From a virus, in the IMG/VR virus record IMGVR_UViG_3300011116_000327, positions 1-21,722 of that record: DNA of 21,722 bases. One strand, written 5' to 3'. This document shows positions 3,229 to 8,718 of the stretch, piece after piece. The position numbers were made by a program, and so were the translations under genes. The notes below the pieces were generated by a model. It saw only the letters and a program-made list of their open reading frames with translations, ran no database searches and had not been told where the DNA came from. Position 1 is the first letter of the stretch. Each line of letters opens with the position of its first letter.

Positions 3229-4857
3229 GTGAACGCCGCCGCTCAATCGTCCTCGCCCGCCGATCTGCTGGGGCAGATCATGTCGCGCTTCAACGCGATG
3301 CCGGAGGACAAGCGAGCCGAGGTCAAGAGGCTGGCCGAGGATGTAACGCGCGGCATGAAGTGGCTGCCGAACGCGGGGCCGCAGACGAAAGCCTATTTCT
3401 GCCCGGCAGACGTGCTGCTCTATGGCGGGCAGGGCGGTGGCGGCAAGTCGGACTTGGGCCTTGGGCTGGCCTTCACCGCCCACGAGAAGTCCCTGATCCT
3501 GCGCCGGCAATACACCGACCTTGGCGCCCTGATCGACCGCGCGCTGGAGATCAACGGCTCGCGCGAGGGCTTCAACGGCTCGCCCCCGCCCAAGCTGACC
3601 ACGGCGGACAACCGCCTGATTCGATTCGGCGCCAACCAGCGGCTCGGTGACGAGCAATCGTGGCAGGGCCAGCCGTTCGACCTCAAGGTGTTCGACGAGG
3701 CGTGCCAGCATCTTGAGCAGCAGGTCCGGTTCCATCTCGGCTGGCTGCGCTCGACCAAGCCCGGCCAGCGCACCCGCGCCCTGTTGCCGAGCAATCCCCC
3801 GATCACGTCCGAGGGCCAGTGGATCATCGGCATGTTCCGCCCGTGGCTGGACATCACGCACCCGTTCCCGGCCAAGCATGGGGAACTGCGCTGGTTCGTG
3901 ACGGACCCGGACGGCAAGGACTTCGAGGTTCCCGGACCACAGCCCTACCAGTTCCCCGGACAGGACCGGCCCGTGCTTCCTGTCTCGCGCACGTTCATTC
4001 CTGCCGAGCTTCGCGATAACCCGTACCTGATCAACACCAACTATCAGGCCCAGCTTGACGCCCTGCCGGAGCCGTTCCGCTCGGCCGTCCGCGACGGCAA
4101 CTTCATGGCGTCCAAGAAGGACGACCAGTGGCAGGTCATTCCGACCGCCTGGATTGTGGCTGCTCAACAGCGCTGGACGCCCAAGCCGCCAGATCATGTG
4201 CCGCTGTGTGCCCTTGGCGTCGATGCCTCGGGCGGCGGTGACGATCCCATGGTGATTGCGGGCCGGCATGATGGCTGGTACGCGCCGCTGGTCGCGGTTC
4301 CCGGCAAGGAGTTGCCGATCGACCGCATGGGCAGCCATGGCGCGGGCATCATCCTCTCGCACAGGCGCGACGACGCTCAAATCGTGATCGACATGGGCGG
4401 CGGCTACGGCGGCTCGATGTACGAGCACCTGAAGCTGAATGGCCTGAGCGTGATCGGCTACAAGGGCTCGGCTGCCTCGACGGTTCGCACCCGTGACCGA
4501 CAGATGGGCTTCGTCAACAAGCGCAGCGAGACCATTTGGCGCTTTCGTGAGGCGCTGGACCCTGACCAGGCCGGCGGCTCGCCCATCGCGCTTCCTCCCG
4601 ACCCGATCCTCGTCTCCGACCTCACTGCGCCGCTGTGGGAGCCGGTCAGCTTCAAGGGCGGCATGGCGATCAAGGTCGAGGACAAGGAAGACGTGTGCGA
4701 ACGGCTGGGCCGCTCGACCGACCGAGGCGACGCCGTGGTCATGGCGTGGTCTTCGGGCCTCAAGCAGATGAACGTCGAGGGGGGCTTCAGCCCGTCTCGC
4801 AAGTCCCGGCCCCAGGTGATCATGGGGCACCAGAACGTGCGTAGAGTAAGGAGGTAG
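3229..4857 (+). CDS. terL: Terminase large subunit
   Basis: This is the packaging ATPase and nuclease that threads DNA through the portal. In the N-terminal ATPase domain a Walker A loop, GGQGGGGKS, lies at residues 66-74 and a Walker B strand, LKVFDEA, ends in D156-E157. In the C-terminal RNase H-like nuclease domain three acidic positions can be proposed: D332 in GVDASGGGDD, D388 in IVIDMGGGYG, and D501 in STDRGDAVVMAW. At 542 residues the length is normal. Translation starts at a GTG touching the TGA of the glycosyltransferase gene. The C-terminus is basic (RRVRR), a common end for these proteins. The order small terminase, two inserted genes, large terminase, portal is compatible with a podovirus whose packaging genes come first. 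Confidence 0.95.
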   Translation: MNAAAQSSSPADLLGQIMSRFNAMPEDKRAEVKRLAEDVTRGMKWLPNAGPQTKAYFCPADVLLYGGQGGGGKSDLGLGLAFTAHEKSLILRRQYTDLGALIDRALEINGSREGFNGSPPPKLTTADNRLIRFGANQRLGDEQSWQGQPFDLKVFDEACQHLEQQVRFHLGWLRSTKPGQRTRALLPSNPPITSEGQWIIGMFRPWLDITHPFPAKHGELRWFVTDPDGKDFEVPGPQPYQFPGQDRPVLPVSRTFIPAELRDNPYLINTNYQAQLDALPEPFRSAVRDGNFMASKKDDQWQVIPTAWIVAAQQRWTPKPPDHVPLCALGVDASGGGDDPMVIAGRHDGWYAPLVAVPGKELPIDRMGSHGAGIILSHRRDDAQIVIDMGGGYGGSMYEHLKLNGLSVIGYKGSAASTVRTRDRQMGFVNKRSETIWRFREALDPDQAGGSPIALPPDPILVSDLTAPLWEPVSFKGGMAIKVEDKEDVCERLGRSTDRGDAVVMAWSSGLKQMNVEGGFSPSRKSRPQVIMGHQNVRRVRR

Positions 4858-5520: not shown

Positions 5521-7226
5521 TGCCGCTCGACGCCTCGACCGATTCTCTTTCCCGCAAGGGCCTGCGCGATCAGATTCGCGCCCAAGGCACCAAGCTGTTC
5601 GATCGCGGCGGCCTGATGGCCTATTGGGAGGAATTGCGCCGGAACTTCTACCCCGAGCGCGAATCCTTCACGGGTACAACTCAGTTGGGCGATGACTTCG
5701 CCTCGGACCTGATGAGTAGCTACCCAGTGGTGGCCCGGCGCGACCTCGGCAACACCTTCGCCGCCCTGCTGCGCCCGACGCGCACGCCGTGGTTCAAGAC
5801 CCGCTCGTCCCGACCCGACCGGGAGACGACCGAAGACCGCCAGTATCTCGACTGGGCAACCGAGCTTCAGCGCAATGCGATGTACGACCGCGTGACCTCG
5901 TTCGTGCGGGCCGCACGCGAGGCGGATCACGACTATTGCACCTTTGGGCAGGCCGCGATCCGGCTGGATATGTACCGCCCGCGCAACGGACAGACGCCCC
6001 ACCTGCTCTACAAGACCCGCCACCTCCGCGACGTGGCGTGGCTGGAGAACGTCATCGGTCAGATCGACACGATCTATGACCGCGACAAGCCCACCGCCAC
6101 GATGCTCCGCGCCCTGTACGGCGATGGGAAGCTGCACCCCAAGGTCATCGAGAAGCTGACCCAGACCAATCCCGAGCCGCACGCGACATTCAACGTGTGG
6201 CGCCTGGTCCTGCCGACCGAGGTTTACCGCGAGATGCCCGGCGCCAAGGACATGCGGACGCCCTACGTCTCGATTCACTACGACGTGGACAACGACCACG
6301 AGATCGAATGCACGGGCCAGTGGACACGAGGCTATGTGATCCCGCGCTGGCAGACCGTCTCGGGCAGCCAGTACGCCCATTCCGCCGCCATGGTCGCGGC
6401 GCTCCCCGATGCGCGTCTGCTGCAGGCCGTGACGCTGGTCCTGCTGGAGGCGGGCGAGAAATCCGTCAACCCGCCGCTGATCGCGACCGAGGATGCCGTC
6501 CGCTCCGACATCGCCATCTATCCCGGCGGTCAGACGTGGGTCTCGCAAGAGTACGACGAGAAGCTGGGCGAGGCGCTGCGCCCGATGAATATCGACGCCA
6601 AGGGCCTCGGCTTCGCCATGGAACTGGTCCGCGATATCCGCTCGTCCCTGCGGGATGCGACCTTCCTGAACAAGATGGATTTGCCCCCGGTCGGCGGCCC
6701 CGACATGACCGCCTACGAGGTCGGCCAACGAGTGCAGGAATACATCCGCAACACACTGCCTCTGTTCGAGCCGGTCGAGCAGGACTACTCGGCCTGGCTT
6801 TGCGACGACAGCTTCGAGTTGCTGTACCGCAACAGCCCGGAAATGCAGATGAACCTGCCTCGCTCGCTGATTGGGCAGGACCGGACATTTGAGTTCGAGA
6901 GCCCGCTGCGTGCTGCAGCCGAGAAGGCCAAGGCCGGACAATTCATCGAAGCGGGCCAGATCATCAGTCAGGCCGCCCAACTTGACCCGACCAACGCCCT
7001 GATCGTGAACAGCAAGAAGGCCACGCGCGACGTGCTGCACGGCATCGTGCCGGCGGCGTGGCTGAACACCGAGGCAGAGGTCGATGCGGCTGTCGCCAAT
7101 CAGAAGGCGGCTGAACAGCAGGCCAAGATCATGGCGCTCATGGAGCAGGGCGCCGGCATCGCCAAGACCGCAAGCGAGGCGGCGGCCAATGTCTCGCAGG
7201 CCGCGCCATCGTTCCAGATGGCGTGA
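5520..7226 (+). CDS. Portal (head-tail connector) protein, T7 gp8-like
   Basis: The protein forms the dodecameric ring at the packaging vertex. It belongs to the T7-type head-tail connector family. Diagnostic stretches are the N-terminal LMAYWEELRRNFYPERESF, then RRDLGNTFAALLRPTRTPWFK, the central LVLPTEVYREMPG and a Gln/Ala-rich C-terminal helix. Two ATGs occur at 5517 and 5520. GGAGG at 5509-5513 is six bases from the second and only three from the first, so I chose 5520 (568 residues). The open frame reaches back to 5448, but that extra part is Arg-rich noise overlapping the previous gene. The length is close to T7 gp8. The gene is followed by an accessory cassette, whereas in T7 the scaffold gene comes next. 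Confidence 0.93.
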   Translation: MPLDASTDSLSRKGLRDQIRAQGTKLFDRGGLMAYWEELRRNFYPERESFTGTTQLGDDFASDLMSSYPVVARRDLGNTFAALLRPTRTPWFKTRSSRPDRETTEDRQYLDWATELQRNAMYDRVTSFVRAAREADHDYCTFGQAAIRLDMYRPRNGQTPHLLYKTRHLRDVAWLENVIGQIDTIYDRDKPTATMLRALYGDGKLHPKVIEKLTQTNPEPHATFNVWRLVLPTEVYREMPGAKDMRTPYVSIHYDVDNDHEIECTGQWTRGYVIPRWQTVSGSQYAHSAAMVAALPDARLLQAVTLVLLEAGEKSVNPPLIATEDAVRSDIAIYPGGQTWVSQEYDEKLGEALRPMNIDAKGLGFAMELVRDIRSSLRDATFLNKMDLPPVGGPDMTAYEVGQRVQEYIRNTLPLFEPVEQDYSAWLCDDSFELLYRNSPEMQMNLPRSLIGQDRTFEFESPLRAAAEKAKAGQFIEAGQIISQAAQLDPTNALIVNSKKATRDVLHGIVPAAWLNTEAEVDAAVANQKAAEQQAKIMALMEQGAGIAKTASEAAANVSQAAPSFQMA

Positions 7227-7244: not shown

Positions 7245-7700
7245 GTGAAAGACGAACTGGAGCGCATAGCGACGGCGCTTGAAAGCATTGCGGCGTCGCT
7301 GATCAAGAAGGCGAATCCGCCGATTGCCGTTGAGCCAGAGTTTGATGCTGACGGTTGGCGCATTCAGCGCGGCTTCCTTGATGACGGAACGTCTTATGTG
7401 ATGCGTATCAAGGAGGGCCACTTGGTAGGATATGATTCGGCACGTGAACCGGGAACGTGGCGTGACCCGGAAACGTCCGATCTGACCAAGCGCATCTTCT
7501 GCAATCCGTCCGGGTCGTGCAGTCGATGCGCTCCCAACATCCGCGATTTGCCTGCTCGACAAGTTCTTGATGCCCTCCAACGGGCCGCAAACCATACGGC
7601 TACGTGTCCATTTCGGCGAGCGTTTGGGCATCCCGATCTGCTGTCCCCTGACGGACGACTAGCGCCTGTCGGCGGTCTCCGTGAATCGGGGCCGGCATGA
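7245..7700 (+). CDS. Hypothetical protein with four cysteines
   Basis: I do not recognise this 151-residue protein. It opens with an amphipathic helix, MKDELERIATALESIAASL, a common oligomerising start in small phage proteins. It continues with a beta-looking middle, GWRIQRGFLDDGTSYVMRI, and has cysteines at 86, 92, 95 and 121, the first three spaced C-x5-C-x2-C, which could hold a metal. GTG at 7245 is preceded by GGAG about nine bases away. The stop overlaps the ATG of the nuclease-fusion gene (ATGA), so the two are coupled. Third codon positions contain visibly more A and T than in the portal or scaffold genes, as expected for a later acquisition. Confidence 0.6.
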   Translation: MKDELERIATALESIAASLIKKANPPIAVEPEFDADGWRIQRGFLDDGTSYVMRIKEGHLVGYDSAREPGTWRDPETSDLTKRIFCNPSGSCSRCAPNIRDLPARQVLDALQRAANHTATCPFRRAFGHPDLLSPDGRLAPVGGLRESGPA

Positions 7701-8401
7701 CGCGGGGTATAGACAAGCTAACGGAGGAAGCCATCGCGGCGGCCACAAAACCTGGCCTATACGGTGACGGCGGCAACCTCTATCTCCAGGTTGCTGACAT
7801 AGACGGCAAGGGCCCGACGAAGTCGTGGGTGTTGCGCTACATGCTCAATGGCCGGGCTCGCAAAATGGGCCTTGGCAGTGTCAACGACCGTACATTGCAC
7901 CAAGCACGCGAGCGCGCTCGGTGGGCACGCTTGCAGCTTGCCGACGGCGTTGACCCCCTCAGTGTAAAATATCTCGTTACGCCCGTCGCGCCGGGGCGAG
8001 AGCCGACCGCTTCTATTCAGCAGACGGCCAAACCCAAAGTTGCGCGACCAACGCTGACCTATTTTATTCAAGCCGGTGACGCGAATGGCCTCGTGAAGAT
8101 CGGCAAGACCACCGACCTAGAGACGCGCATCGCAAGACTTCAGACTGGGTGTCCTCTGCCGCTGCATGTCATCCGCACAATCTCATGCGATTGTGAATCA
8201 TACATGCACCGAGCATTTGCGGGCGAACGCCAGCGCGGCGAGTGGTTTGAGTTTTGCCCGAGTATGCTTCTTCTGCCCGACCCAGCGACAGAGGCGGTCT
8301 GGCTGCAAGGTGACGCGTGGCGCGAGACTGTTGATCTTCTCTACGGCGGCCCCCTCGGGGGAGGCATGAGTAAACTCGCCATCAACGGGGCGAGAGACTG
8401 A
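7697..8401 (+). CDS. Integrase arm-binding domain fused to a GIY-YIG nuclease domain
   Basis: This 234-residue protein joins two known modules. Residues 5-90 match the N-terminal arm-type DNA-binding domain of P4-like tyrosine integrases (DUF4102): LTEEAIAAA, YGDGGNLYLQV, KSWVLRYMLNGRARKMGLG, then QARERARWARLQLADGVDP. No tyrosine recombinase catalytic domain follows. After a linker (about 95-118), residues 120-186 match the GIY-YIG/T5orf172 (MUG113-like) nuclease domain: TYFIQAG, LVKIGKT at 132-138, R144 in LETRIARL, E167 and H171, then GEWFEF at 181-186. The whole is a DNA-binding plus nuclease architecture like a homing or site-specific endonuclease. The gene overlaps its neighbours on both sides (ATGA and TGATG). 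Codon use is less GC-biased than in structural genes. Function is inferred from domains only. Confidence 0.8.
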   Translation: MTRGIDKLTEEAIAAATKPGLYGDGGNLYLQVADIDGKGPTKSWVLRYMLNGRARKMGLGSVNDRTLHQARERARWARLQLADGVDPLSVKYLVTPVAPGREPTASIQQTAKPKVARPTLTYFIQAGDANGLVKIGKTTDLETRIARLQTGCPLPLHVIRTISCDCESYMHRAFAGERQRGEWFEFCPSMLLLPDPATEAVWLQGDAWRETVDLLYGGPLGGGMSKLAINGARD

Positions 8402-8718
8402 TGGCATTGCCCAAGCTCCCGGTCCCCCGCCGTGTGCCGACCAAGAAGCCCCCGCCGTTCTTTGATGTGGAGTGGGATACGCCGGACGCGGCAGCCTTGC
8501 AGGCATTAGCCCGAGGCGACGCCACACCCGAGCAACAGAAGCGCGCCCTTGACTGGACGATCAACAAGGCCGCCCGCGCCTATGACGTGAGTTTCCAGCC
8601 CGACAACCCGCACGGCACCGACTTCTTCGAGGGCCGCCGCTATGTCGGACTGAAAATCGTGGAGCTTTTGAAAATCAGCACGCGAGACTTTGCAACGCAA
8701 GACACAGGTGAACGCTAA
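8401..8718 (+). CDS. Bbp19-like phage protein
   Basis: This 105-residue protein has a proline-rich, basic start followed by a compact helical domain: TPEQQKRALDWTINKAA, then PHGTDFFEGRRYVGLKIVELLKI. The 'R.LDWI... F.EGRR.VG..IV.LL' pattern matches a small family found near head genes of podoviruses, named after Bordetella phage BPP-1 Bbp19. Its job is not established. A virion assembly role fits the position directly before the scaffold gene. The ATG overlaps the TGA of the nuclease-fusion gene by one base and the TAA overlaps the ATG of the scaffold gene by one base, so this junction is tight on both sides. Confidence 0.65.
   Translation: MALPKLPVPRRVPTKKPPPFFDVEWDTPDAAALQALARGDATPEQQKRALDWTINKAARAYDVSFQPDNPHGTDFFEGRRYVGLKIVELLKISTRDFATQDTGER

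What the first reader, a model, noticed from the sequence alone, without database searches (positions are those of the whole stretch)
7697..8401. Integrase arm-binding domain rewired onto a GIY-YIG nuclease
The N-terminal half is a DUF4102 arm-type DNA-binding domain, normally found only at the front of P4-like tyrosine integrases. Here the recombinase domain is absent and a GIY-YIG/T5orf172 nuclease domain follows. Such a protein could cut DNA that looks like an integrase arm site: attachment regions of competing integrative elements, the phage's own att region or a homing site. A weapon against satellites or rival prophages would be a new use of the arm domain. Seen: the two domain signatures and the missing catalytic part. 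Inferred: the activity and the target.
Basis: partly seen in the sequence, partly recalled or inferred. Interest (0 to 1): 0.75.

Follow-up and report, generated by a model that had tools for sequence, protein, structure and literature searches.

The report
Phage nuclease wearing integrase's DNA-binding domain
A bacterial virus carries a small DNA-cutting enzyme whose DNA-recognising half comes from the integrase of an integrating element, so it may cut rival elements at the place where they insert into the host chromosome; the build is real and so far unique in our searches, but the cutting is untested.

Summary
Window 7697-8401 is one intact 234-aa gene: a P4-type integrase arm domain (PF13356/DUF4102, residues 8-89) followed by a MUG113/T5orf172 GIY-YIG nuclease with its catalytic residues; the recombinase part is absent. 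No second such fusion appeared in any collection searched. The nearest arm domains (67-75% identity) belong to ordinary integrases of alphaproteobacterial elements, and the DNA-contacting beta-sheet is almost unchanged from theirs. The gene sits in an accessory slot of a BPP-1/HTVC010P-like podovirus, empty in most relatives. In two of the closest relatives that slot carries the CBASS inhibitor Acb3; the neighbouring slot can carry homing endonucleases. One of the nearest arm donors lies in an 11.2-kb element in tRNA-Ser (int, AlpA, small terminase; no large terminase, portal or capsid found) that shares internal virion proteins with this phage family: a satellite or a deleted prophage. Best reading: a homing-endonuclease-derived, Odn-like chimeric nuclease aimed at attachment arm sites of competing elements. 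Main rival: an ordinary homing endonuclease with an unusual DNA-binding domain. Domain capture by this nuclease family has a precedent (Odn of phage ICP1); use of an integrase arm domain was not found described.

The parts
7697..8401 (+). chimeric gene, 234 aa: arm-type DNA-binding domain + GIY-YIG (MUG113/T5orf172) nuclease
7718..7963 (+). Arm-DNA-bind_3 domain, residues 8-89
   Evidence: E 7.6e-16; fold match to 3ju0/3jtz/3rmp
7754..7882 (+). beta-sheet region of the arm domain (residues 20-62), the expected DNA-contact surface; 33 of 35 donor-clade residues kept
   Evidence: DNA contact by the sheet is established knowledge of this fold (3rmp)
7964..8056 (+). linker, residues 90-120, low predicted order in most of its length
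8057..8263 (+). MUG113/T5orf172 GIY-YIG nuclease domain, residues 121-189; Y122, R144, E167 (codon 8195-8197), H171
7245..7700 (+). companion ORF of 151 aa, unknown, inserted together with the chimeric gene; overlaps its start codon; low GC3 (0.57)
5529..7226 (+). portal (head-tail connector), left border of the slot
8401..8718 (+). Bbp19-like gene, right border of the slot
   Evidence: E 3.2e-4, below the Pfam cut-off; conserved in relatives

Best explanation
The gene encodes a chimeric nuclease that arose when a homing-endonuclease-type GIY-YIG domain (MUG113/T5orf172) was joined to the arm-type DNA-binding domain of a tyrosine integrase from an integrative element. In an infected cell the arm domain would bind the arm-type sites that flank the attachment core of elements using that integrase class (the characterised example sits in tRNA-Ser), and the GIY-YIG domain would cut DNA nearby. 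That would disable the rival prophage or satellite, or its excised circle. Shown: both domains, conserved catalytic residues, fold and ancestry of the arm half, retention of the binding sheet, the accessory slot. Inferred: DNA binding, cleavage, identity of the target, benefit to the phage.
For: Domains and catalytic residues. Arm fold equals P4-type arm domains including the attP complex. Nearest arms are integrases at 67-75% identity, more than the 42% between Odn and its target's RepA_N. Sheet residues kept 33/35 against 27/46 elsewhere, p 2.6e-4; other integrases keep 22-25 of 35. Arm dN/dS 0.13-0.16 against the nearest integrases. The L042 integrase lies in an 11,231-bp element between 16-bp att repeats at tRNA-Ser that has int, AlpA and TerS and homologues of the window's g15741 (59%) and internal virion protein (42%), with no homologue found of TerL, portal, MCP or tail-tube genes. 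The portal-Bbp19 slot holds the CBASS inhibitor Acb3 in L365 and L294. Precedent: Odn of ICP1 and coliphage homologues.
Against: No binding or cleavage data; arm sites of these elements are not mapped. Only one instance of the fusion exists in our searches, so no co-evolution with targets can be shown. The satellite-like element may be a deleted prophage. Homing endonucleases occur in the neighbouring slot of relatives, which fits the rival. dS near saturation makes the selection estimate rough, and the region test (sheet against rest) was chosen after seeing the alignment.
Confidence: 0.48

Rival explanations
1. An ordinary free-standing homing endonuclease whose DNA-binding module happens to be an arm domain. 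It cuts the homologous slot in related phages that lack it and spreads by repair, with no effect on other elements.
For: MUG113/T5orf172 is a homing-endonuclease-associated nuclease; alphaproteobacterial relatives carry the homing-endonuclease-associated repeat PF18780 in front of it. The gene is absent from 80 relatives, most with an empty slot. L314 (GIY-YIG+NUMOD3) and L345 (HNH) carry homing-type genes one gene further on.
Against: The arm sheet stays almost identical to that of living integrases, which a new phage target would not explain. Putative arm motifs are not enriched in the window, but they are unproven motifs. The slot itself holds Acb3, an anti-defence gene, in L365 and L294.
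Confidence: 0.28
2. It acts by occupancy more than cutting: the arm domain occupies arm sites and blocks integration or excision of rivals (or of the phage's own relatives), the nuclease half being minor or used only for removal of bound circles.
For: Arm domain structurally intact; homing nucleases can act as repressors, as noted in the literature read.
Against: Catalytic residues are fully kept, which would be unneeded.
Confidence: 0.1
3. A chance or decaying fusion, or an assembly artefact, without function.
For: Single instance in all searches.
Against: Intact in-frame ORF overlapping both neighbours, similar GC3 in both halves, catalytic and DNA-contact residues kept.
Confidence: 0.05

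Closest known systems
Odn (origin-directed nuclease, Gp88) of Vibrio phage ICP1, with the Odn-like proteins of coliphages Inny, Muut and Mt1B1_P17 (PMC8263062, PMC10448857)
   Same: Phage-encoded; N-terminal DNA-binding domain resembling one of a mobile element; C-terminal T5orf172-type GIY-YIG nuclease; similar gene size (odn is under 700 bp, this gene 705 bp).
   Different: The captured domain is an integrase arm domain, not RepA_N; the expected target is an attachment region, not a replication origin; activity is untested here.
MUG113/T5orf172 free-standing homing endonucleases (with CapR, DUF723, DUF4397 or, here, PF18780 modules)
   Same: Same nuclease family and layout; insertion between late genes; absent from relatives.
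   Different: Arm domain as the DNA-binding module, not seen in any MUG113 protein examined here.
Arm-type domain of P4-like integrases (3jtz, 3ju0, 3rmp)
   Same: Same fold (Z 11.6-12.9) and full domain.
   Different: No core-binding or catalytic recombinase domain follows.
HNH-AP2 homing endonucleases
   Same: Endonuclease domain joined to an AP2-type domain; the arm model also aligns weakly with an AP2 structure (6sy0, Z 5.6).
   Different: HNH, not GIY-YIG; AP2, not an integrase-derived arm domain.

Membership tests
Odn-type anti-satellite nuclease | T5orf172/MUG113 nuclease domain with conserved catalytic glutamate | tested here: met
Odn-type anti-satellite nuclease | N-terminal domain closely similar to a DNA-binding domain of a mobile element | tested here: met
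   67-75% to integrases, one in a satellite-like element
Odn-type anti-satellite nuclease | the captured domain is RepA_N, aimed at a replication origin | tested here: not met
   it is an integrase arm domain; so it may work like Odn but is not filed as one
Odn-type anti-satellite nuclease | cuts the element from which the domain came and protects the phage | not testable with these tools
   needs nuclease and infection assays
Homing endonuclease (MUG113/T5orf172) | nuclease family and DNA-binding module at opposite ends | tested here: met
Homing endonuclease (MUG113/T5orf172) | gene absent from the same site in relatives | tested here: met
   no homologue in 80 relatives; most slots empty
Homing endonuclease (MUG113/T5orf172) | cuts the empty allele and is copied into it | not testable with these tools
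   needs cleavage and co-infection assays
P4-like tyrosine integrase | arm-type domain | tested here: met
P4-like tyrosine integrase | core-binding and tyrosine recombinase domains | tested here: not met
   no recombinase hit; 145 residues after the arm, with a GIY-YIG domain
PICI-like satellite (the G002 element, not the gene) | integrase, AlpA, small terminase without large terminase, att repeats at a tRNA | tested here: met
PICI-like satellite (the G002 element, not the gene) | no relics of a helper-like prophage | tested here: inconclusive
   internal virion proteins in the window's order leave 'deleted prophage' open
PICI-like satellite (the G002 element, not the gene) | induced and packaged by a helper phage | not testable with these tools
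   needs induction experiments

The most novel reading that the evidence does not exclude
An attachment-site-directed nuclease: a phage has turned the integrase arm domain of its satellites or rival prophages into the aiming part of a GIY-YIG nuclease, so that any element keeping that integrase carries the sites by which it is cut. This would be a second class of captured-domain anti-element nuclease beside the origin-directed Odn, with the attachment region as target.
Probability: 0.42. Interest if true: 0.85.

Novelty: new variant of a known kind. Interest (0 to 1): 0.68.

Why it matters
If true, capture of a rival's own DNA-binding domain onto a homing-type nuclease is a repeated strategy that works with different targets (origin, attachment region), not a peculiarity of Odn and its relatives. 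An attachment-directed nuclease would put selection on integrase and arm-site pairs, a possible reason for their turnover. The accessory slots beside the portal and the Bbp19-like gene, holding Acb3, homing endonucleases or this gene, are also a place to look for further counter-defence genes.

Tried and rejected
Phage hits H1 and H2 that seemed to span both halves are annotated as integrase-like genes of about 390 aa. Plasmid hit H41 spanning both halves is spurious: a stop codon separates the parts. A degenerate DNA pattern for arm-spacing-KIG gave 26 viral loci, none with a fusion. Arm loci from genomes (80) and viral contigs (24) and 59 MUG113 ORFs: only the window, and L001 which is its own copy, has both halves; most but not all of the 80 genome loci are complete integrases, others are truncated or cut by contig ends. 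Portal relatives from the first alignment were too distant; the second alignment gave the close ones. The nearest portal in the donor order (G078, 42%) lies at a contig end, so its slot cannot be read. Combined arm+GIY alignments misaligned, so the halves were modelled with separate alignments. Foldseek with the GIY-based model gave no significant match, its N-terminal half being poor. A sharper arm-site motif was sought; only a 9-bp repeat CTTCCGAGG left of the L042 integrase and a conserved GTTTGTRCGTA box were found, not usable as proven sites. Literature: no paper held both DUF4102 and GIY-YIG; none on Acb3 was held, so that function rests on the Pfam name.

Full report
WHAT IS THERE. Window 7697-8401 (+) is a single ORF of 234 aa without internal stops. 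Pfam finds Arm-DNA-bind_3 (PF13356, the former DUF4102) at residues 8-89 (E 7.6e-16), MUG113 at 133-189 (E 3.9e-12) and T5orf172 at 121-187 (E 2.9e-6), all above curated cut-offs, and no recombinase domain. The gene overlaps the preceding ORF by four bases and the following one by one. Two structure predictions, one fed with integrase arms and one with MUG113 domains, each fold the corresponding half confidently. The arm half aligns with the arm domains of HAI7 and HPI integrases, including the attP complex 3rmp, at Z 11.6-12.9. The nuclease half aligns best with Slx1, a GIY-YIG nuclease, at a modest Z of 4.9. Residues Y122, KIG134-136, R144, E167, H171 and EWF182-184 are kept, with few exceptions, across distant relatives.

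HOW RARE IT IS. tblastn of the protein against 50,697 phage and 72,556 plasmid records shows no true fusion among the best matches. In genomes, the 80 best arm matches belong to integrases, complete or truncated. In viral contigs, 24 arm matches and 12 MUG113 matches all lack the other half. A local HMM scan of ORFs of the loci fetched by then finds 112 arm and 59 GIY ORFs, and only the window (with its own copy L001) has both. The searches depend on peptide patterns and sampled genomes, so 'unique' means unique in what was searched.

WHERE THE ARM COMES FROM. The nearest arms are in a prophage-like viral contig (L002, 67% over 107 residues; a gene resembling a host solute-binding protein at its left end, by my reading of the translation, and a small terminase further on), in L041 (75% over 88) and in L042 (73% over 91), the latter two from genomes of one bacterial order. 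Pairwise dN/dS of the arm is 0.13-0.16, though dS is near saturation. Within the arm, region 20-62, the beta-sheet that contacts DNA in this fold (established knowledge; 3rmp is the attP complex), keeps 33 of the 35 residues fixed in the donor clade, the rest 27 of 46 (p 2.6e-4); other integrases keep 22-25 of 35 in the sheet. This suggests that the binding specificity of that integrase clade has been retained; it does not prove it, and the regions were chosen after seeing the alignment.

THE DONOR-LIKE ELEMENT. The L042 integrase lies in an element of 11,231 bp bounded by the 16-bp repeat ATGGCGGAGGGGATGG, whose right copy is the 3' end of tRNA-Ser(GCT). It encodes the integrase, AlpA, an AAA_25 ATPase, an Sf6-type small terminase, a GNAT protein and homologues of the window's g11561 (30%), g15741 (59%) and internal virion protein (42% and 27% in two segments). 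No homologue of the window's large terminase, portal, capsid or tail-tube genes was found in it. It is satellite-like; but the virion genes follow the order of the window with blocks missing, so an internally deleted prophage is also possible. Either way an element with a closely related arm domain shares virion genes with this phage family, which places the two in contact.

THE SLOT. The window is the late module of a BPP-1/HTVC010P-like podovirus. In 80 relatives with portals 44-70% identical, neither the chimeric gene nor ORF151 gives a hit, and in most the Bbp19-like gene follows the portal directly or after a short gap. L365 and L294, with portals about 70% identical, carry Acb3 exactly there, a CBASS inhibitor by Pfam (E 2.8e-72 and 1.6e-71). 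L314 carries a GIY-YIG+NUMOD3 gene and L345 an HNH gene between the Bbp19-like gene and the scaffold gene. The region thus takes up both anti-defence and homing-type cargo. ORF151 and the chimeric gene have lower GC3 (0.57, 0.65) than the other phage genes (0.71-0.89), as expected of newcomers.

MECHANISM. The best explanation is an Odn-like nuclease aimed at attachment arm sites (0.48). Odn of ICP1 is the direct precedent: a T5orf172 nuclease joined to a RepA_N domain 42% identical to that of the satellite PLE, which cuts the satellite's origin and is dead when E180 is changed (PMC8263062). Similar proteins in coliphages match putative satellites (PMC10448857). The survey in that paper lists Zn-finger and RepA_N modules on T5orf172 nucleases; in the passages read here no arm domain is mentioned. 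The main rival is a plain homing endonuclease (0.28): the nuclease family, the PF18780-bearing relatives and the neighbouring slot all fit it. Against it stands the conserved arm sheet; putative arm motifs are not enriched in the window, but those motifs are unproven. Blocking by occupancy (0.10) and an artefact (0.05) are less likely.

WHAT IS NEW. Capture of a mobile element's DNA-binding domain by this nuclease family is known; an integrase arm domain as the aiming part was not found described. I therefore call it a new variant of a known kind. Activity, target and benefit are all untested.

Noticed in passing
L365 7847-8668; L294 4217-5116: The same portal-Bbp19 slot in two of the closest relatives carries Acb3 (PF25187, CBASS inhibitor), so the slot is an anti-defence location.
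   Followed up: partly
L314 7362-8156; L345 8225-8773: Between the Bbp19-like gene and the scaffold gene, relatives carry a GIY-YIG+NUMOD3 gene and an HNH gene: a homing-endonuclease hot spot in the capsid module.
   Followed up: partly
L362 1901-2419: A proteasome-subunit-like protein (PF00227, E 6.1e-9) lies between the Bbp19-like gene and the scaffold gene of another relative.
   Followed up: no
window 7245-7700; L315 7736-8188: ORF151 has no known family; it shares the peptides PETSDLT and GGLRESGPA with an otherwise different ORF in the same slot of L315.
   Followed up: partly
L372 1-11433 (G002:C31 339701-350932): An 11.2-kb element in tRNA-Ser(GCT) with int, AlpA, small terminase and internal virion proteins but no large terminase, portal or capsid homologue found: a candidate satellite of BPP-1/HTVC010P-like podoviruses.
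   Followed up: partly
L232 12150-12872; L252 304-1104; L254 374-1159: Alphaproteobacterial MUG113 proteins with an N-terminal homing-endonuclease-associated repeat (PF18780; in L232 below the Pfam cut-off), one about 4-5 kb from a prophage portal gene.
   Followed up: no
window about 4668-4747: An 80-bp stretch of the large-terminase gene is 76-80% identical in DNA to terminase genes of ten Streptomyces phages, with no other DNA match.
   Followed up: no
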